Shown one piece after another: positions 55,372 to 64,000 of a stretch of 64,000 nt of DNA. The notes beneath the pieces are model-generated. The model was given only the letters and a program-made list of their open reading frames with translations, ran no database searches and was not told the DNA's origin. The stretch is taken from positions 1,426,001-1,490,000 of the forward strand of contig NZ_JAKVPE010000001.1 of the NCBI RefSeq assembly GCF_022482365.1, in the 5' to 3' direction. This stretch comes from Limosilactobacillus sp. (GTDB lineage Bacteria > Bacillota > Bacilli > Lactobacillales > Lactobacillaceae). Numbering within the stretch: position 1 is the stretch's first letter; each line of letters begins with the position of its first letter. The position numbers were made by a program, and so were the translations under genes.

Positions 55372-56235
55372 ATGCAATACATGATTACCGGTGCCACCGG
55401 TCACCTCGGTCAACAGGTGGTCGAACAGCTCAGTAAATTGACCGCTAAGGAAAACATTCGTCTCGGGGTCCACACCCCTGCCAAGGCCGCCAAGCTCAAG
55501 GACGCCGGCTTTGAGCTGGCCGCCGTCGACTACCGCAATATTGATTCGATGGTGACCGCCTTTCAGGGGGTCGACGTTCTGGTCTACATCCCCAGCATCA
55601 CCTACAACGTCCAGGACCGGCTCAACGAGTTTGAAAACTCCCTGACCGCCATGCAGCGGGCCGGGGTTCAGAACCTGGTGGACGTCAGTTTCATCGCCGA
55701 CCAGGCCAACAATCCCTTTCAGATGGCCGGCTACTACGCCTACCTGCCCGCACGCCTGGCTTCATCAGGGCTGAACTACGCGGTCGTCAAAAACGCGCTC
55801 TACGCCGATCCGCTGATCCCCTATTTACCAGAACTGATTGAGCGCCACAACGTCATCTACCCAATCGGTGACCAGGCAATGAGCTTCATCTCCCGAACCG
55901 ATAGTGCGGAAGCGATCGCTAACGTAGCGGTTAAGCCCTACTTGCGCGATCACGGCCAGAACTACCTGCTGACGATGGGGCAGAATTACAACATGGTCGA
56001 ACTCGCCCGCCTGATGACCGCCGCCACCGGCAAGCAGATTGGTTACGCCCCCGTTTCCGTCCAGGAATTCGCCGACATCTACCGGGCCGAGGGTGATGGC
56101 GATGAGCTGGCCTCGATGTACCAGGCCGCCGCAATGGGGCTGATGGACGCAGTCACCAGTGACTTTCGCCACATTACTGGTCACGCCCCGCAGGCGATGG
56201 GGGCTTTTTTGAAAGAAAATTACCAACCGCAATAA
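55372..56235 (+). CDS. NmrA/SDR-type NAD(P)-binding quinone-oxidoreductase-like protein
   Basis: 287 residues. NAD(P) loop ITGATGHLGQQVVEQL; DVLVYIPSITYNVQDRL and VVKNALYADPLIPYLPELIE are typical of the QorB/NmrA-like atypical SDRs, which lack the YxxxK catalytic pair. Likely reduces a quinone or senses NADP. Operon with Rrf2; terminator follows. Confidence 0.88.
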   Translation: MQYMITGATGHLGQQVVEQLSKLTAKENIRLGVHTPAKAAKLKDAGFELAAVDYRNIDSMVTAFQGVDVLVYIPSITYNVQDRLNEFENSLTAMQRAGVQNLVDVSFIADQANNPFQMAGYYAYLPARLASSGLNYAVVKNALYADPLIPYLPELIERHNVIYPIGDQAMSFISRTDSAEAIANVAVKPYLRDHGQNYLLTMGQNYNMVELARLMTAATGKQIGYAPVSVQEFADIYRAEGDGDELASMYQAAAMGLMDAVTSDFRHITGHAPQAMGAFLKENYQPQ

Positions 56236-56246
56236 TAAAAAAATAG

Positions 56247-56292
56247 CAAAAATCGGTACCCAGCATTCCCAATGCTAGAGTACCGATTTTCT
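56247..56292. terminator. Bidirectional terminator
   Basis: AAAATCGGTAC (56249-56259) pairs with GTACCGATTTT (56280-56290), with inner AGCATT/AATGCT. It divides the reductase from the helicase gene. Confidence 0.9.
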
Positions 56293-58548
56293 TTATTCCT
56301 TCGTCTTATCGCGCCGGTGCTTGCGAATCATCCGCCGCACACAGCTCTTCATCGTCTTTACGTCGAGAACGCCGCGCGCAAAGCCCTTTTTGATCAACTC
56401 GTCCGGGACGTACTGGTCGTATTTGTCGAAGACCGGGACCTCGTTTTCAAACACCAAGTCGAGCGGATCGAAGTCCTTGGCCGCTTCCTCGCCGATAACT
56501 TGGTAGAACTCGTCGGCCGAGGCGTCCATCGAGAATTCCATGTAGTAGGGCCGGACCGAGTTGAAGCCGCGCAGGCCGAGTCGGTCGGCACACTTGAGCC
56601 GCAATAAGCGCTCCAGGGCCAGGAAGGCATAAGTCCCTGTCCACGGGAAAAGGCACCACATCTTGCCACCGAGGTTGATCAACGACTCATTGAGCATCTC
56701 CGCCGCCTGTGCTGTGGCCCGAGCCTCGCGCAGGCGGGCGGTCGCGTTGGTCATCAAGTATGGGTAGGACTTATCCTCGGCCAGGACCTGCTGCATCCGT
56801 TCCAGTATCCGCGGATCGATGTCGCCGGCCACGTCGCCGAAGTAGGCCGGGATCCGGCCCTTGACCTGGTGGCAGTAAACCTGGTGGCGTTTGCGGTCCA
56901 CGTCCTCGACCACCCAGACGCGCCCGGCGATGGCGATTTTGTCGCCAACCGGCGGCGGCTTGACGATCGTCCCCAGCTCTTCGGAACCGGAGTGAACGCT
57001 GAATTCCTCATTTTCCTGGAAGACCGCGTAGAACTTGAAGTTGTTGACGACCCGCTCACCGGCCAAACCAACAATCACCCCGCCATTTTCCGTCTGCTCG
57101 ATGTGGTCAATCTTAATTAGGTGGCGCAGGAGGACCCGGTAATCGTCCTGGCTGATGTTGTGAAAGTACGACAGGGTCAGGACCCGCGACGCCAGTTCGG
57201 CCGGGGTCATCTCGCCGCCCGCTGCCAGGGTGCTCATCGTTTGGTGATAGAGCAGACTGTAAGGCAGGCGTCCGGTCCGCGGCGGCTCCACGAAGCGTTC
57301 CTCGAGGTAGAGCTGAACCAGGGCAATTCCCTGAATCAGCGGCCAGGGAATCAGCTCCGGCAGCATCGCCCGCGACTCGGGATGTTCCTCACGCATCACG
57401 AACCACATCTCAGGCGGGTTGCCCCGGCGACCGGTCCGGCCCATCCGCTGCAGGAAGCCGGAGACGGTAAAGGGAGCATCGATCTGAAAGGCCCGTTCGA
57501 GCCGACCGATGTCAATTCCCAGCTCCAGGGTGGCGGTCGCACAAGTCGTCATCAGGGAGTTCTCGTCCCGCATCGCCTCCTCGGCCGTCTGCCGGAAGGA
57601 GGTCGAGAGATTGCCATGGTGGATCATGAAGCGGTCGGGCTCGTGGTTGGCCGCGCAGTATGCCCGCAGCGCCTGGCAGACCGCCTCGCATTCTTCCCGA
57701 CTGTTGGTGAAGACCAGGCACTTCTTTCCCCGGGTGTGCTCAAAGACGTAGGCCAGGCCCGGATCTGCCATCGTCGGCGCCTTGTCGGTTGCCTGTTCGA
57801 GCACCGGCTGGGCGTCCTTGACGTTGGCATCGTCACCGGCCTGGACCGGGTCCTTGTAAAAGTGCTCCATCGAAAGGCGCCAGACCTCATGGGTGTCAGC
57901 GATCTTCGGAATGACCGTCCCCTTACCGCTGCCGGCCGCTAAGAGCTGACCGGCCAACCGCGGATCGCCAATCGTCGCGGAGAGGCCGATCCGGCGGGGA
58001 TGACAGCCGGCCAGGCGGGTCAGGCGTTCAATCAGGCAGAAGGTTTGCCCACCCCGGTCGCCCCGCAGCATCGAGTGGATCTCATCGATCACGATGAAGC
58101 GGAGGTCGCCGAAGAGGCTGGGGATATCCATGTGCTTGTTGAGCATCAGGGACTCCAGTGACTCCGGAGTAATCTGCAGGACGCCGGACGGGTGGCGGAG
58201 CAGCTTGCGTTTCTGCGACTGTGACACGTCGCCGTGCCAGCGCCAGACCGGGATCCCCGGCTCGTGGCAGAGGACGTTGAGCCGCTGGTACTGGTCGTTA
58301 ATCAGGGCCTTGAGCGGGGCGATGTAGAGGCAACCAACCGAGGACGGCGGCTCCTCATCCATCAGGGTCAGGATCGGGAAGAAGGCCGCCTCCGTCTTTC
58401 CCGAGGCGGTCGGGGCGGACAGGAGGACGTTCTGGTCGGTCGTAAAAATTGCCTCACCGGCCGCCTGCTGGATTGCCCGGAGGCTGCGCCAGCCCTGGCT
58501 ATAGATGTAGTCCTGGATAAAGGGCGCGTACCGTGAAAAGACGTCCAT
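56293..58548 (-). CDS. Lhr-like DEAD/DEAH-box helicase
   Basis: 751 residues, AGGAGG ribosome site. Superfamily II motifs: LLSAPTASGKTEAAFFP (motif I, about 42-58), VIDEIHSMLRGDRGGQ (motif II DEIH, 155-158), LSAT (189-192), CATATLELGIDIG (motif V) and LQRMGRTGRRG (motif VI). The C-terminal 330 residues resemble the winged-helix and accessory part of Lhr-type helicases. Third gene of the TerB/P-loop/helicase operon. A DNA or RNA translocase role is known for the family; the function of this set is unknown. Confidence 0.88.
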   Translation of the reverse strand: MDVFSRYAPFIQDYIYSQGWRSLRAIQQAAGEAIFTTDQNVLLSAPTASGKTEAAFFPILTLMDEEPPSSVGCLYIAPLKALINDQYQRLNVLCHEPGIPVWRWHGDVSQSQKRKLLRHPSGVLQITPESLESLMLNKHMDIPSLFGDLRFIVIDEIHSMLRGDRGGQTFCLIERLTRLAGCHPRRIGLSATIGDPRLAGQLLAAGSGKGTVIPKIADTHEVWRLSMEHFYKDPVQAGDDANVKDAQPVLEQATDKAPTMADPGLAYVFEHTRGKKCLVFTNSREECEAVCQALRAYCAANHEPDRFMIHHGNLSTSFRQTAEEAMRDENSLMTTCATATLELGIDIGRLERAFQIDAPFTVSGFLQRMGRTGRRGNPPEMWFVMREEHPESRAMLPELIPWPLIQGIALVQLYLEERFVEPPRTGRLPYSLLYHQTMSTLAAGGEMTPAELASRVLTLSYFHNISQDDYRVLLRHLIKIDHIEQTENGGVIVGLAGERVVNNFKFYAVFQENEEFSVHSGSEELGTIVKPPPVGDKIAIAGRVWVVEDVDRKRHQVYCHQVKGRIPAYFGDVAGDIDPRILERMQQVLAEDKSYPYLMTNATARLREARATAQAAEMLNESLINLGGKMWCLFPWTGTYAFLALERLLRLKCADRLGLRGFNSVRPYYMEFSMDASADEFYQVIGEEAAKDFDPLDLVFENEVPVFDKYDQYVPDELIKKGFARGVLDVKTMKSCVRRMIRKHRRDKTKE

Positions 58549-58571
58549 TTCCGCTCACCTCCTTTGGCAAA

Positions 58572-59903
58572 TCAAATCGTAAATTCCGCAAAACCGTCGT
58601 CCTTTTTGTCGGAGACGGCAGCCGACTGGTTGTAGTTGAACTGGTCGGAATTAAGCAGGGTCTTCACGTCAGTTCCCGGGTTCTGCCAGAGGATGTCCAG
58701 CAGCTCAATAAAGTCCCGGATGACCTCCCGGGGCGTGATGTTGGCACTCGCCCCAATCCGGCCGTACTCAATCTTGATAAAGGTCGCCAGGTCCTCCTCA
58801 CTGATCGTCCGCTGGTAGCCGTACAGGTTGGCGTGCATGTCGGCCAGCTTCTCCGTCAGCACCAGCATTTCTTCAGCCGTCAACGGCTCCAGCTTGATCA
58901 CCGGCGCGTACATGTCGCGGGCCCCATCACGGGAAAACTTCCCGGCGGTCAGCCGCGAGCGCAGGGCCTCGTATGAGTAGACGCCCCGCCGCCGGTCCTC
59001 GATCGCCTGCGGGGTCCCGCACATGATGATGCCCAGGTACTTGGCCTTGCCCTGGAGCGTATCGTTGTACATCGTTAGGATCTTCTCGTAGTTGTACTGG
59101 CGGCTGATGCTGTTCGGGATCTTCGAAATGTTGACCAGCTCGTCGATCATGATCATCATCCCCTGGTAGCCGGCCTGGCGGAAGAAGGCGGCGAAGAGCT
59201 TCAGGTACTCGTACCAGTCGTCGTCGGAAATGATGATGTTGACGCCGAGCTCCTTCTTGGCGTCGGTCTTGCGGTCGTACTCGCCCCGGAACCACTTCGT
59301 CACCTTGGCCTTGGTCTCTTGGTCATCATCCACGTAGGCGCGGTAGTACATCTCAAGGAGCTTGGCGAAGTCGAAGCCGTGCACCAGCTCGTTTAAGGAG
59401 GCGATCACCTTGTAGATCTCCTTGTCGACCGCCGTTGCGAAATTGGGCGCACTCGGGTCGATCCCCTGCTCGCTAGCCACCTTGGCCTGGACCGAGCTGA
59501 TCCAGCGGTCGAGGACCAGGTTGAGGGCCCCACCCTCGGGCCGCGTCTTGGTGGACAGGTTTTGAATCAGCTCCCGGTAGGTGGCCAGCCCCTTGCCGTT
59601 GCCGCCGTGCAGCCGGCGCTCGGGCGAGAGGTCGCCGTCGACCACGATGAAGCCCTTGTCCATCACGTAGTTACGAATCGTCTGCAGAAGGAAGCTCTTC
59701 CCCGAGCCGTAGCGCCCCATGATGAAGCGGAAGGAGGCGCCCCCTTCGCTGATGATGTCGACGTCGTGGAGCAGAGCCGCGATCTCGTCTTTACGGCCGA
59801 CCGCGATGTAGGGCAGGCCGATCCGTGGCACCACACCACCCTTGAGTGAATTCAGAATTGTTTGGGCAATCCGCTTGGGAACCCGTTTACGTACTTCTGG
59901 CAT
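58572..59903 (-). CDS. BrxD-like (DUF2791-type) P-loop ATPase
   Basis: 443 residues, GAGGAG ribosome site. Walker A RFIMGRYGSGKSFLLQTI (63-70), Walker B MMIMIDELVNISKI (Asp-Glu 254-255), sensor-like IIMCGTPQAIEDRRRGVYSY, and an N-terminal RIAQTILNSLKGGVVPRIG typical of the BREX system ATP-binding domain family. BrxD is an accessory ATPase of BREX type 2, but no BREX methylase, PglZ or PglX is seen. Middle gene of the operon: 10 bp after the TerB gene, 23 bp before the helicase. Confidence 0.85.
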   Translation of the reverse strand: MPEVRKRVPKRIAQTILNSLKGGVVPRIGLPYIAVGRKDEIAALLHDVDIISEGGASFRFIMGRYGSGKSFLLQTIRNYVMDKGFIVVDGDLSPERRLHGGNGKGLATYRELIQNLSTKTRPEGGALNLVLDRWISSVQAKVASEQGIDPSAPNFATAVDKEIYKVIASLNELVHGFDFAKLLEMYYRAYVDDDQETKAKVTKWFRGEYDRKTDAKKELGVNIIISDDDWYEYLKLFAAFFRQAGYQGMMIMIDELVNISKIPNSISRQYNYEKILTMYNDTLQGKAKYLGIIMCGTPQAIEDRRRGVYSYEALRSRLTAGKFSRDGARDMYAPVIKLEPLTAEEMLVLTEKLADMHANLYGYQRTISEEDLATFIKIEYGRIGASANITPREVIRDFIELLDILWQNPGTDVKTLLNSDQFNYNQSAAVSDKKDDGFAEFTI

Positions 59904-59913
59904 GCTTTTCTCC

Positions 59914-61782
59914 TCACTTTAGTAAATCCTCAAGATCCTCCCGGTAGTCATCAATGACTGCGGGCTGGTCCTGATCATCAAATTCAATCACCGTGTCACC
60001 AATCTCGTCAAACAGCTTTTCGTTGAGGCCATCAACTAAAATGCTGACCATCAGGTGGTGCTGGCGAACATAATCCTGCCAATCCGTCCCGGCCAAAAGA
60101 TGAACCAGTAGGTAGGATTCGTCCTTTGTCAGGCCGAGTTCTGCACCCCCGGACGCTGCGCTTGTGCTGTCCGAAGCAGGCGACTCTTCCGCTGGTTGTT
60201 GCGGTGCCGCGGGCTGGGGCACGGTGTTCGCGACACTGGCCACGTTCCGTTGCTCCTCGGCCCGTTCGGCGGCCTTTTCCTCGTCCGTCAGCAAGCTCTC
60301 CCTGGTTACCGACGCGTCGGCCCGGATCTGGTCCAGATTGGCCAGGTTAATCTTGATTTTCGGCCGGCGCTCCTCTTCAATCTGGTGGCGGGCCTCCGCA
60401 ATTGCCGGCTCGATCTGCGTCAGCATCGCTTGTGCCAGTGGTCGCGGTTTCAGTCGTCGGCCCAAATGAAACTCCTGGCGAATGAGCCGGTCAATTTCGT
60501 GCAGCAGGCAACCGATCTTCTGCGCCCGCCGCTGGGCCGGAACGCAGTAGCGGTGCTCCCAGCGGCCGTCGTGATAGTGGTAGCTGCAAAGAGCGTCGAC
60601 CTGGCGACTAAACCGTCGCTGCGGCTGCCGGTCATAAAAGACCGCGTTCGCAAACGGCCGGGTCGTGCTTTCCCCCTGCCACCCCAGGAGATTGCTCTCG
60701 ACGTTTTCGTCCGGCAGGTGGCACAACCGGCACCAAGCTGCCTTGACGATCGCCGCCGTCAGGGCCGGATCCCGCTTCTTAAGAGGACAGCGGCCGAAAT
60801 CATAGGAAGAATAATTCTCCAGGGCCGCCGTTACGGCCGCGGCCGGTTGCTCCGTCGGTTTGACCAGGGTCCAATAGGCATCGTCTGCTGCGATCTGTTC
60901 TTGAAATTGTTCCCGCATTGCCGAATCAGGCAGCTGATAGTAAATCGTGTAGTCACGAAGCCACTGCTGAAGGCACTGACCCATCCGTGGATCCATCAAC
61001 TTGGCATAGCCATGCTGAAAGTCCCGCAGCTTCTGGTAACCCTCCTCGGGTGTCTTGACCCCGATCTGGTTGATCAGCTCGTACAGGTAAACGTAGGCAA
61101 AGGAGTCCGGCGCCAGGACATACTCCCCCTGACGAATCTTGGTCCGCCAGGCAAAGTAGCCGCGCAGCTGGGCGGTCGTCATGTCGTGGTAGACAGGAAA
61201 ATAGCGGTGAAAATCGCCTTGGTAGCGATAGTCGTCCGTATAGTCCGCCACGCTTTGCCCCTGGACGTAAAAGTTCTTCGCCCGACCACTGGCTGGTGGC
61301 AATGTGTAGTCGTAGAGCTTCCGCATTTTCTGCAGGGGCGCCGGCAACTGCTTGTGCTTGGCAAAGGGCAGGGCCCGCTCGCCTAGCTGTGGCAGTGGCT
61401 GATCGTGGTAGATGTGGGTCTGGCGAACTGGTGGCACGTAGATGAGCCGCTCGGTCTGCTTGGCCCCTTCCGGCGACTGCAGGCTCTGCTTGAAGGCCCG
61501 GCTGAGGGCAGCCTGGATTGTTGCCACCGGCGTCTGGTCGTCAAGGATCACCCCGTGCCAGCCAGCCTTGTGCATCCGGTGCGCTTCTCCTAGTCCCGGC
61601 TCCTCTGCCTGAATATCCAGGTAGGCGCGACCAGTCTCACCCTGGGGCTGCTCCAAGAGGGCAAACCAGCGACCGTTGACGGGGGAAGCAAAGACGCAGG
61701 CGTTCCACTGCTGGGCCAGGCGATAGTTCGGCTGAACACCGAATTGCTGGCGAATGTATTGGATCACGTCATTTTGGTTCAC
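59914..61782 (-). CDS. YjbR-like / TerB_N / TerB_C fusion protein
   Basis: 622 residues from GTG 61782 (GGGAGG eight bases upstream; GTG 61791 lies inside that site). Residues 1-100 resemble MmcQ/YjbR domains (RWFALLEQPQGETGRAYLDI, then MHKAGWHGVILDD). Residues about 170-300 are TerB_N-like (FAYVYLYELINQIGVKTPEE, WLRDYTIYYQLP). Residues about 470-620 are TerB_C-like (KIKINLANLDQIRADASVTR, ESLLTDEEKAAERAEE), with a low-complexity Pro/Ala/Ser linker inside. TerB modules occur in stress and phage-response gene sets. First gene of the operon. Confidence 0.75.
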   Translation of the reverse strand: MNQNDVIQYIRQQFGVQPNYRLAQQWNACVFASPVNGRWFALLEQPQGETGRAYLDIQAEEPGLGEAHRMHKAGWHGVILDDQTPVATIQAALSRAFKQSLQSPEGAKQTERLIYVPPVRQTHIYHDQPLPQLGERALPFAKHKQLPAPLQKMRKLYDYTLPPASGRAKNFYVQGQSVADYTDDYRYQGDFHRYFPVYHDMTTAQLRGYFAWRTKIRQGEYVLAPDSFAYVYLYELINQIGVKTPEEGYQKLRDFQHGYAKLMDPRMGQCLQQWLRDYTIYYQLPDSAMREQFQEQIAADDAYWTLVKPTEQPAAAVTAALENYSSYDFGRCPLKKRDPALTAAIVKAAWCRLCHLPDENVESNLLGWQGESTTRPFANAVFYDRQPQRRFSRQVDALCSYHYHDGRWEHRYCVPAQRRAQKIGCLLHEIDRLIRQEFHLGRRLKPRPLAQAMLTQIEPAIAEARHQIEEERRPKIKINLANLDQIRADASVTRESLLTDEEKAAERAEEQRNVASVANTVPQPAAPQQPAEESPASDSTSAASGGAELGLTKDESYLLVHLLAGTDWQDYVRQHHLMVSILVDGLNEKLFDEIGDTVIEFDDQDQPAVIDDYREDLEDLLK

Positions 61783-61811
61783 TGGCTCCACCTCCCTTAT
61801 TACAACTCATC

Positions 61812-61842
61812 ATTGTAAACTATGAACCAAGGTTCCAGTCAA
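61812..61842 (-). promoter_or_regulatory. Promoter of the TerB/ATPase/helicase operon, 19-bp spacer with dyad
   Basis: TTGACT (61842-61837), 19-bp spacer, TACAAT (61817-61812) on the minus strand. The spacer is centred on GAACC-AA-GGTTC (61824-61835). The layout is MerR-like, as at 645-675, but the dyad sequence differs. Confidence 0.6.
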
Positions 61843-61898
61843 CTAATTCGGCCAGAAATCTTCCGGTTACTGCGCTGCCGTTCTGGTAGCAAAAAAGT

Positions 61899-63177
61899 GG
61901 TAGATTATAGAATGAAGTTAGCCACCCAGTTGGTGGTAAATAAAAAACGCCATTCGGCGTGACATCAGGTATCATATTAAGTGAACCAAACCTATATGAA
62001 AGGATGTCCGTCAAATGACGCACTTAAATGATACCATGTCTACTATTTTATTGACTACTCATAAAAAGAATGCTCATCTTACTAAAGAAGAACGTGTGAT
62101 GATTGCGACTTTAAAGTCGCAAGGACTTTCCAATCGCGCAATTGGTCGCCAATTAGGAGTTAATCATCAAACAATTAATAACGAGCTCAACCGTGGTACG
62201 GTCCGCCAACTTCGTCGTCAAAAATCTAATGGTAAGATTTACGAATATTCTTACTACATCTATAGTTATGAAGCTGGTCAGGCCACATATCTTGAACATC
62301 ACCGCCATTCTGGTCGTCGTCGCTTATATTATTCTTCAAAGCAATTTTTACGATTAGCTGATCAGCTAATGCTTGGTGAGTTTGACGACCACCATTACTC
62401 CCCACAAGCGGTTATTTATAAGGCTCGAGATTTAATGAATGATGGCACCCTGATCCCAAAGTCGGTTGTAACTTTATATCAATGGATTAATGAGGGTGTG
62501 CTTCGTACGTCCAATTTAGACCTCTTTGAAAAACCTAAACGTAAGCATCATCAAACTCATCCGCAAGCTAAAAGGTGCTTAGGGCCTAATATTGCTCAAC
62601 GACCTCAAACTGCGGACCAACGGTCCGAAATTGGCCATTGGGAACTGGATACAGTTCAGGGACAGAAAAACGGTAATGACAGTGTTGTACTAGTAATGAC
62701 TGATCGCCTTTCACGAGTTAATATCACGAGTAAAATTGCTGGTAAAACTGCGCATGCAGTAAATCAGTTCTTTATAAATTTGCGCCAGAAAATGGGCACA
62801 GATGCTTACTATCGCATTTTTAAGACAATAACCTCTGACAACGGTTCAGAATTTAGTGAGTTAACACAAGTTCACGATCATGTTTTCTATGCTGATCCGT
62901 ATTCCCCTTGGGAACGTGGATCCAATGAGATCAATAACCGGTTTCTCCGCAAGGAGATTACCAAAGGTGAAGCTATAAATAACTATAGTAGTGCTCAGAT
63001 CATAGCGACTAATGATTGGATGAATCACTATCCACGAGCTATGTTTAATGGACATTCGTCAATGGATATCTATCGTAAGGCCTTCTACCAAGAGATATCA
63101 CAGCTCCATCAACCAATAATCAATTGGTCAGTATTATTTATTTGAGTCCAGTGGCTAACTTATTCTTGAAATTTAGG
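61899..63177 (+). mobile_element. IS30-family insertion sequence, copy 3
   Basis: 1279 bp with the same ends as the other copies. Flanked by 13-bp direct repeats GTAGCAAAAAAGT at 61886-61898 and 63178-63190. It lies between the TerB operon promoter and the repeat array of the divergent ATPase; the right duplicate contains the first bases of that array. Confidence 0.95.
62015..63145 (+). CDS. IS30 family transposase
   Basis: 376 residues, identical in protein sequence to the copies at 13539 and 17630, with intact HTH and DDE core. It is read toward the AAA ATPase gene; no terminator is obvious between the transposase stop and that gene, so read-through transcription is possible. Confidence 0.97.
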   Translation: MTHLNDTMSTILLTTHKKNAHLTKEERVMIATLKSQGLSNRAIGRQLGVNHQTINNELNRGTVRQLRRQKSNGKIYEYSYYIYSYEAGQATYLEHHRHSGRRRLYYSSKQFLRLADQLMLGEFDDHHYSPQAVIYKARDLMNDGTLIPKSVVTLYQWINEGVLRTSNLDLFEKPKRKHHQTHPQAKRCLGPNIAQRPQTADQRSEIGHWELDTVQGQKNGNDSVVLVMTDRLSRVNITSKIAGKTAHAVNQFFINLRQKMGTDAYYRIFKTITSDNGSEFSELTQVHDHVFYADPYSPWERGSNEINNRFLRKEITKGEAINNYSSAQIIATNDWMNHYPRAMFNGHSSMDIYRKAFYQEISQLHQPIINWSVLFI

Positions 63178-63186
63178 GTAGCAAAA

Positions 63187-63252
63187 AAGTATAAAGAAGT
63201 ATAAAATAGAGAAAAAGTATAAAGAAGTATAAAAGAAAACAAAAAGTATAAA
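63187..63252 (+). repeat. Array of AAGTATAAA repeats before the AAA ATPase
   Basis: AAGTATAAA begins at 63187, 63197, 63215, 63225 and 63244 (steps 10, 18, 10, 19). A 20-bp unit of two motifs is exactly repeated at 63187-63206 and 63215-63234. The last copy runs into the ribosome site AAAGGAGG. Confidence 0.85.
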
Positions 63253-63265
63253 AGGAGGATGGCTC

Positions 63266-64000
63266 GTGAAAAATCCTTTTAACCCCAGCTTCGGTCGGGT
63301 TCCCAAAATTTACCTGGACCGCACCCAAACCGTCAAACAGCTTGAAACTGACATTCAGGATGTTGACAGTCCCTACTTAACCACCCTCATTTACGGGATG
63401 CGTGGCTCTGGAAAGACTGCGCTCTTGACTGACGTCAGCCGTGATATCAGGAAGCTTCCCGACTGGCTAGTCGTCGACCTTACCATGAGTGACAAGCTGA
63501 TCCCAACGCTAATTGAATTGGTCTACAAGCAGGCCGATCGTGGGCTGCAAAAGCTGCTGACGGGGATTAACGGCATCAGCGTAGACACGGCGGGGATTTT
63601 GAAGGTAGCCTACCAGCGTGATCGTTCCAGTGTAACAAATTCGCCGCACCAACCCCTGCTGGAATCACTGGCGGAAACCCTTCACCAGCGGAAACTCAAG
63701 TTGCTAATTACCATTGATGAGATTAGTTCCACCCCCGCGTTAAGGGAGTTTGCTTCAATTTATCAAATTCTTTTGCGCAATGAATACCACATCGCCCTGC
63801 TGATGGCGGGCCTTCCCAGCAAGGTTTCGGAGCTGCAAAACGACGATGTGCTCACCTTCCTGCTCCGAAGCCAGCGAATTTATCTTGAACCCCTCAGCCT
63901 CCTTACCATTAAAAGCAGCTACCAAACGGCCTTTTCCCGTGACGGTCGCTCCATCAATTCCGCAAATCTAAACTACATCACCAAGGCCACTAATGGTTAC
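63266..64000 (+). CDS. AAA family ATPase (partial)
   Basis: 245 codons from GTG 63266 (AAAGGAGG seven bases upstream; the nearer ATG stops after seven codons), open to the window edge. The N-terminus KNPFNPSFGRVPKIYLDR is typical of a family of stand-alone ATP-binding proteins. Walker A IYGMRGSGKTALL (44-51), Walker B LLITIDEISSTP (Asp-Glu 151-152), then LMAGLPSKVSEL like the sensor region. The C-terminal domain lies outside the window. Divergent from the TerB operon. Confidence 0.85.
   Translation, partial: MKNPFNPSFGRVPKIYLDRTQTVKQLETDIQDVDSPYLTTLIYGMRGSGKTALLTDVSRDIRKLPDWLVVDLTMSDKLIPTLIELVYKQADRGLQKLLTGINGISVDTAGILKVAYQRDRSSVTNSPHQPLLESLAETLHQRKLKLLITIDEISSTPALREFASIYQILLRNEYHIALLMAGLPSKVSELQNDDVLTFLLRSQRIYLEPLSLLTIKSSYQTAFSRDGRSINSANLNYITKATNGY

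What the first reader, a model, noticed from the sequence alone, without database searches (positions are those of the whole stretch)
56293..61782. TerB-fusion / BrxD-like ATPase / Lhr-like helicase operon: candidate DNA-processing or defence module
Seen: three tightly spaced minus-strand genes encode a YjbR-like + TerB_N + TerB_C fusion, a BrxD/DUF2791-type P-loop ATPase with intact Walker motifs, and an intact DEIH-box Lhr-like helicase. Known: BrxD-type ATPases and DEAD/DEAH helicases occur in BREX type 2 loci, and TerB domains in stress and phage-response gene sets. No methylase, PglZ, nuclease or BREX core is present here. Inference: this is a self-contained helicase-ATPase system, possibly acting on foreign or damaged DNA. 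To my knowledge its biochemical role is not established.
Basis: partly seen in the sequence, partly recalled or inferred. Interest (0 to 1): 0.75.

Follow-up and report, generated by a model that had tools for sequence, protein, structure and literature searches.

The report
Shango anti-phage operon in a lactobacillus
The three genes are a copy of Shango, an anti-phage defence system already described in Pseudomonas and E. coli, carried here by a lactic acid bacterium with a differently built sensor-like protein.

Summary
They are not an undescribed module. Each has its own Shango model as best PADLOC hit (SngA 1.4e-77, SngB 6e-193, SngC 3.6e-278). Shango is a published three-gene anti-phage system (PMC10250203, passages). 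The triad is a set in 18 of 18 same-genus carriers; all three genes were found in 71 of the 80 best genome loci. It is patchy (18 of 50 genus genomes), and two relatives have other genes at this site. The one twist is SngA: an N-terminal YjbR/DUF419 fold (Z 15.3 to 3h9x) and no TerB core, whereas the two proteobacterial SngA scanned have a TerB core and no YjbR. YjbR-TerB fusions were noted in print in 2020. Activity of this copy, and the mechanism, are untested here.

The parts
59914..61782 (-). sngA: YjbR/DUF419 fold (residues 1-101), disordered linker, TerB_N (144-350), middle region without a TerB core, TerB_C (462-618) ending in a winged-helix-like segment
58572..59903 (-). sngB: AAA+ ATPase of the BrxC/BrxD Pfam family, Walker A and B intact
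56293..58548 (-). sngC: SF2 DEIH-box helicase, closest solved structure Lhr (5v9x), closest defence relative BrxHI
61788..61798 (-). ribosome-binding stretch AAGGGAGGTGG ahead of the GTG start of sngA
   Evidence: read directly from the sequence
62015..63145 (+). transposase-like gene (HTH_38 + integrase core, the latter just under cut-off; IS30 label recalled) next to the operon; inferred part of the exchanged block, not of the system

Best explanation
This is a Shango anti-phage operon (the confidence given is for that identity; for the mechanism that follows it is about 0.5). SngA is a sensor and adaptor that binds DNA, or a DNA-protein target of an invader, through its double-wing YjbR domain and its winged-helix-like tail, and holds the complex together through TerB_N/TerB_C. 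SngB, an ATPase of the BrxD kind, loads or switches on SngC. SngC, an Lhr/BrxHI-type translocase, then moves along invader DNA and blocks its replication or packaging. Shown here: gene identity, intact catalytic motifs, grouping of the three genes, patchy distribution, fold of the N-terminal domain. Shown by others for homologues: phage inhibition. Inferred: DNA binding by SngA, helicase loading by SngB, a nuclease-free mode of action, and activity of this copy.
For: Shango models are the top PADLOC hit for all three proteins: SngB 640 bits against BrxD 178, SngC 923 against BrxHI 424. The PA14 operon of the same make-up lowered plating of many, not all, phages 10-100 fold and generally protected liquid cultures (PMC10250203, passages). 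A-B-C in one order in 18 of 18 genus carriers, this one included. In the other 17, SngA is 32-58% identical, against 76-91% for SngB and 70-92% for SngC, as expected for a part under an arms race. Patchy: 18 of 50 genus genomes, 17 of 301 family genomes in 3 of 40 genera. Flanks differ among carriers, and the NmrA to AAA-ATPase interval holds other genes in G020 and G032. On plasmids: 680 records match SngB, 540 of them typed conjugative; the three whose neighbourhoods I opened are Shango (all nine proteins). The loading idea follows PMC12839542, which proposes it for BrxD-BrxHI (passages).
Against: I have no phage or biochemical data for this copy. No known defence genes were recognised beside it, and few near the homologues. 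SngA differs in domain make-up from the proteobacterial kind, so function may not carry over. GC is weak evidence of transfer: triad GC exceeds flank GC in 17 of 17 loci compared (L028 left out), but the triad's GC3 (0.71-0.86) is like that of 6 of 8 other window genes (0.67-0.87; the other two 0.34 and 0.42). The double-wing DNA-binding role of YjbR is itself a structural inference in the literature. The winged-helix-like tail rests on Z of only 5 to 6.
Confidence: 0.9

Rival explanations
1. A remnant or minimal form of type 2 BREX: BrxD and BrxHI kept after loss of PglX, PglZ, BrxC and PglW.
For: SngB belongs to PF10923 BrxC_BrxD; SngC matches BrxHI at 424 bits. SngC, BrxHI, DruE and DpdJ are reported as a potential helicase clade (PMC12278908, passages).
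Against: SngB scores 181 against the BrxD equivalog cut-off of 350 and 640 on SngB. The triad with SngA recurs in Firmicutes and in the two proteobacterial plasmids opened, so it is not a local remnant.
Confidence: 0.03
2. A housekeeping DNA-repair or stress operon: an Lhr-type helicase with a TerB stress protein acting on the cell's own damaged DNA.
For: Nearest solved structure is Lhr (Z 26.1); NCBIfam's best hit for SngC is the ligase-associated DNA-damage helicase, though at 207 against a cut-off of 850 bits. Lhr as a repair helicase is recalled.
Against: Not found in 32 of 50 genus genomes (SngB at 1e-80); another gene set at the same site in two relatives; fast-changing SngA; a split SngA copy in L034 and a domain loss in L023; anti-phage data for homologues.
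Confidence: 0.05
3. It acts mainly on plasmids or conjugative elements rather than phages (compatible with being Shango).
For: Nothing in the sequence favours phage over plasmid DNA; plasmid-borne relatives are common, which could mean competition among plasmids.
Against: The published tests I saw are phage tests; no plasmid test seen.
Confidence: 0.1

Closest known systems
Shango (PADLOC SngA PDLC03958, SngB PDLC03959, SngC PDLC03960; P. aeruginosa PA14 and E. coli systems)
   Same: Three genes in the order TerB protein, ATPase, helicase; best PADLOC model for each; near full-length coverage of SngB and SngC.
   Different: SngA has an N-terminal YjbR/DUF419 fold and lacks the TerB core (PF05099) found in the Azospirillum and Klebsiella SngA; the SngA model matches only from residue 104 of the 625-aa ORF on. 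I did not fetch the PA14 SngA itself.
Type 2 BREX BrxD-BrxHI pair
   Same: Same ATPase Pfam family and related helicase; a tightly linked ATPase-helicase pair.
   Different: Scores far below Shango models; SngA takes the place of the BREX core genes in the operon.
YjbR (MmcQ)/DUF419 proteins, e.g. PSPTO_3016 (3h9x/2kfp), DR2400 (2a1v), E. coli yjbR (2fki)
   Same: Fold of SngA residues 1-101 (Z 15.3, 11.1, 9.4); profile match E 5.7e-15.
   Different: Stand-alone proteins there, here fused to TerB_N/TerB_C. PMC7641849 mentions YjbR-TerB fusions (passages).
Lhr helicase (5v9x, M. smegmatis)
   Same: First in both fold searches; aligned over 475 residues from 1 to 745 (Z 26.1, rmsd 7.8).
   Different: 19% identity; the SngC model is only of moderate confidence (pLDDT 71.5).

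Membership tests
Shango | SngA, SngB and SngC models all matched in one operon | tested here: met
   1.4e-77, 6e-193, 3.6e-278; 10 and 23 base gaps
Shango | TerB-type protein | tested here: met
   TerB_N and TerB_C over cut-off. The TerB core PF05099, listed for Shango in PMC10952713, is matched by 0 of 43 SngA of this type at E 0.01 and by the 2 proteobacterial SngA over cut-off; if the core were required, this feature would fail
Shango | Anti-phage activity | not testable with these tools
   Shown for the PA14 operon by others (PMC10250203, passages)
Type 2 BREX | BrxD equivalog | tested here: not met
   181 bits, cut-off 350
Type 2 BREX | PglZ beside BrxD/BrxHI | tested here: not met
   The genome's only PglZ match is at C1:1152291, about 330 kb away
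Type 2 BREX | PglX, BrxC and PglW beside BrxD/BrxHI | not tested
   No family search run for these around the operon; none recognised by eye among the ORF translations of 40000-64000
YjbR/DUF419 (SngA residues 1-101) | Sequence and fold of the family | tested here: met
   Fold Z 15.3, profile E 5.7e-15; against: single-sequence Pfam score below cut-off (20.6 against 30.1), and only 9 of 43 SngA match PF04237 at E 0.01
Lhr-type helicase | Lhr core and C-terminal architecture | tested here: inconclusive
   5v9x top, but model pLDDT 71.5; NCBIfam helicase equivalogs match far below cut-off

The most novel reading that the evidence does not exclude
Shango is one conserved ATPase-helicase engine with an exchangeable, fast-evolving sensor: SngA carries a YjbR double-wing domain in many gut Firmicutes (42 of 66 uncut SngA among the best 80 loci), a TerB core in the two proteobacterial SngA scanned, and neither in others (e.g. 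Paenibacillus). The swapped domain would set which invader DNA is recognised, so this lactobacillus copy would be a distinct Shango subtype with its own target range.
Probability: 0.35. Interest if true: 0.5.

Novelty: new member of a known kind. Interest (0 to 1): 0.28.

Why it matters
It places a known defence system of unknown mechanism in a food- and gut-related genus, and shows that its one variable part (SngA) is built from different domains in different lineages while ATPase and helicase stay alike. That gives a direct test of whether SngA is the sensor: swap or delete its N-terminal domain and look for a change of phage range.

Tried and rejected
Searches without result: SngB in the phage records at 1e-10, and SngB peptide patterns in the viral contigs. 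SngB has no relative of solved structure by phmmer at 0.01. NCBIfam gave nothing for SngA at 0.001.

BREX remnant: rejected on scores. Recent foreign origin from GC: not upheld (17 of the 18 genus loci compared, L028 left out). One search found 9 promoter-like sites in 55800-63500 where shuffles give 3.6 (sd 1.5), two of them on the minus strand within about 280 bases ahead of sngA, and 7 terminator-like sites where 7.0 are expected; I did not follow these up. No inverted-repeat pair of 14 bases or more brackets the transposase gene. Defence-island test: I gave 95 of the 195 flanking proteins listed; no control set was run. The fold search for SngA lists only weak helical matches for the TerB_N region and Z 5-6 winged-helix matches for residues 551-622; that list is a second look at Foldseek's matches and does not show that a fold is absent. 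Papers on Shango's mechanism or on YjbR within Shango: none recognised by title or abstract start in the capped lists; many subscription papers are not held, and Millman 2022 is cited only through.
Full report
What is there. Three minus-strand genes at 56293-61782. The first, sngA, starts at GTG 61782 behind AAGGGAGGTGG, so it is 622 aa; 10 bases later follows sngB (443 aa), and 23 bases later sngC (751 aa). Pfam: TerB_N and TerB_C in the first, BrxC_BrxD in the second, DEAD and Helicase_C in the third.

What it is. In PADLOC each protein's best hit is its own Shango model: SngA 260 bits, SngB 640 bits over the whole protein, SngC 923 bits. The BREX models score 178 (BrxD) and 424 (BrxHI). NCBIfam's BrxD equivalog scores 181 against a cut-off of 350. 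Shango is in print: a three-gene TerB, ATPase, helicase system of P. aeruginosa PA14 that, in PAO1, lowered plating of many phages by 10-100 fold (not of all phages tried) and generally protected liquid cultures; the same paper says it was also found in E. coli, with modest inhibition of two phages (PMC10250203, passages). A review table lists PF05099 TerB for Shango (PMC10952713, one passage), and a 2026 review lists its mechanism as unknown (PMC12926258, passages). SngC, BrxHI, DruE and DpdJ were reported as a potentially distinct helicase clade of immune function (PMC12278908, passages). For BrxD-BrxHI a helicase-loading role has been proposed (PMC12839542, passages).

Grouping and spread. 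SngB (E 1e-80) is in 18 of 50 genomes of the genus. All 18 carry A, B and C in that order on one strand; in one (L034) SngA is split into two frames, and in one (L028) SngC is only 701 aa, ending 95 bases before the contig end. In the family, SngA at 1e-20 is found in 17 of 301 genomes and 3 of 40 genera, a lower bound because SngA diverges quickly. Of the 8 loci without SngC, 6 have a contig that ends within about 150 bases after SngB, and L069 and L114 have about 1 kb left without it. L127 and L131 are arranged differently, and SngC lies further off in L096, L119 and L123. 680 plasmid records match SngB at 1e-40, 540 of them typed conjugative; I opened the neighbourhoods of three, all Shango. 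The Klebsiella Shango DNA matches 454 of 5426 E. coli genomes. No hit in phage records or viral contigs. The genus is probably Limosilactobacillus: one genus carrier's contig (G040:C6, 629,925 bases) has the length and SngB position of a contig titled Limosilactobacillus secaliphilus; this is an inference.

Site. Among 18 carriers the genes beside the triad differ; no flanking gene cluster is shared by more than 4 loci. To the left of this copy, the OpuC-Rrf2-NmrA arrangement is kept in 9 of 10 relatives fetched, which I had picked by hits to these genes; in L146 the OpuC gene is turned round and further off. In 2 of the 10, G020 and G032, the AAA-ATPase gene follows too, and the interval between NmrA and it, which here holds Shango and a transposase-like gene, holds a LysR-like, a LytR-like and a lyase-like gene instead (these names are read from the sequences, not from a family search). 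In the other 8 no relative of the AAA-ATPase gene lies in the stretch fetched. G020 carries Shango on another contig and G032 has no match. That lyase-like gene is not found in this genome at 1e-80; 7 of 50 genus genomes have it. So the locus looks like an exchanged block, not a core locus. The neighbours on the left are ordinary (Rrf2 and NmrA by Pfam; a transporter by reading). Of 95 flanking proteins from the wider set, at E 1e-30, two match a mad3 model and three PDC-S01 models match one member each (95 of 195 given, no control).

SngA. It is the fast-changing part: 32-58% identity in the genus against 76-91% for SngB and 70-92% for SngC (17 relatives). By region the N-terminal domain and the linker behind it are mostly the least alike and the last 45 residues mostly the most alike. 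AlphaFold2 with 43 sequences gives mean pLDDT 87.7. Residues 1-101 match the YjbR/DUF419 structures 3h9x (Z 15.3), 2a1v (11.1) and 2fki (9.4). The A4 profile hits 2kfp at E 5.7e-15. Pfam's YjbR model reaches E 0.01 in only 9 of the 43, of which 35 were picked as carrying the domain; of six further genus SngA, four match it (E 4.5e-5 to 0.12, all below cut-off) and two do not at E 1. The domain has drifted. Residues 551-622 look winged-helix-like, but at Z 5-6 only. All 43 have TerB_N and TerB_C and none the TerB core at E 0.01, while the Azospirillum and Klebsiella SngA have it over cut-off and no YjbR. Among 79 SngA of the 80 loci, 13 are cut by a contig end; of the other 66, 42 carry the YjbR-like domain, 17 have a short or no N-terminus, and 7 have something else (L126 among the 7 contains an unreadable stretch, and the ORFs of L064 and L068 are incomplete). 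In the genus 17 of 18 have the domain; L023 has none. That YjbR is fused to TerB in some contexts was stated in PMC7641849, which also reviews its double-wing, probably DNA-binding, fold (passages). I recognised no paper on YjbR within Shango in the lists.

SngB and SngC. Walker residues of SngB are invariant in 8 aligned proteins as far apart as Klebsiella. SngC motifs are invariant in 34. The SngC model is moderate (pLDDT 71.5); its first match in both fold searches is Lhr bound to ssDNA (5v9x: Z 26.1 over 475 residues; E 5e-20).

How it most likely works. Shown here: identity, intact motifs, grouping, patchiness, the N-terminal fold. From others: phage inhibition by homologues. Inferred: SngA detects invader DNA or a DNA-protein feature of it; SngB, by likeness to BrxD, loads or activates SngC; SngC runs on the DNA and stops its use. 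Pfam at 0.001 shows no nuclease domain in the three proteins (weak ResIII and Cas3-like helicase-part matches apart), so either motor action alone suffices or a host nuclease follows. Confidence that it is Shango is 0.9; confidence in the motor-and-loader mechanism is perhaps 0.5.

Verdict. A correct observation of a known system. The name, the gene set and anti-phage activity are already published for homologues; the architectural variant of SngA is a modest addition.

Noticed in passing
own genome C1:1151670-1160900 (L148:10671-19900): A BREX-1-like set (PglZ 838 aa, Eco57I-type methylase 1178 aa, part of BrxC) on a stretch that also has a phage-type integrase gene and, by reading only, relaxase-like and replication-like genes; about 330 kb from the operon.
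   Followed up: partly
63266-64366 (runs past the window end; L036:14267-15367) and L148:31-1143: Two AAA ATPase genes that look alike (N-termini NPFNPSFGRVPKI and NPFMPSFGRLPKI), one beside Shango and one near the integrase of the BREX region; only weak, sub-cut-off AAA matches.
   Followed up: partly
62015-63145: Transposase-like gene of low GC (0.40 against 0.53 for the window) between the operon and the AAA ATPase gene; GC3 0.34.
   Followed up: partly
L034:11684-13550: SngA of this relative is split into two frames near its C-terminus, a possible sign of decay of an accessory gene.
   Followed up: partly
L124:3724-5970, L123:4202-6001, L127: SngA ORFs with other, unclassified N-terminal extensions (255, 116 and 167 residues before the matched TerB region); start codons not checked. 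L127 and L131 also differ in gene arrangement.
   Followed up: no
L149:15689-19318 (E. coli H6 chromosome): A large DEAD/DEAH helicase gene near E. coli Shango beside integrase remnants; Azospirillum Shango also has a helicase gene upstream.
   Followed up: no
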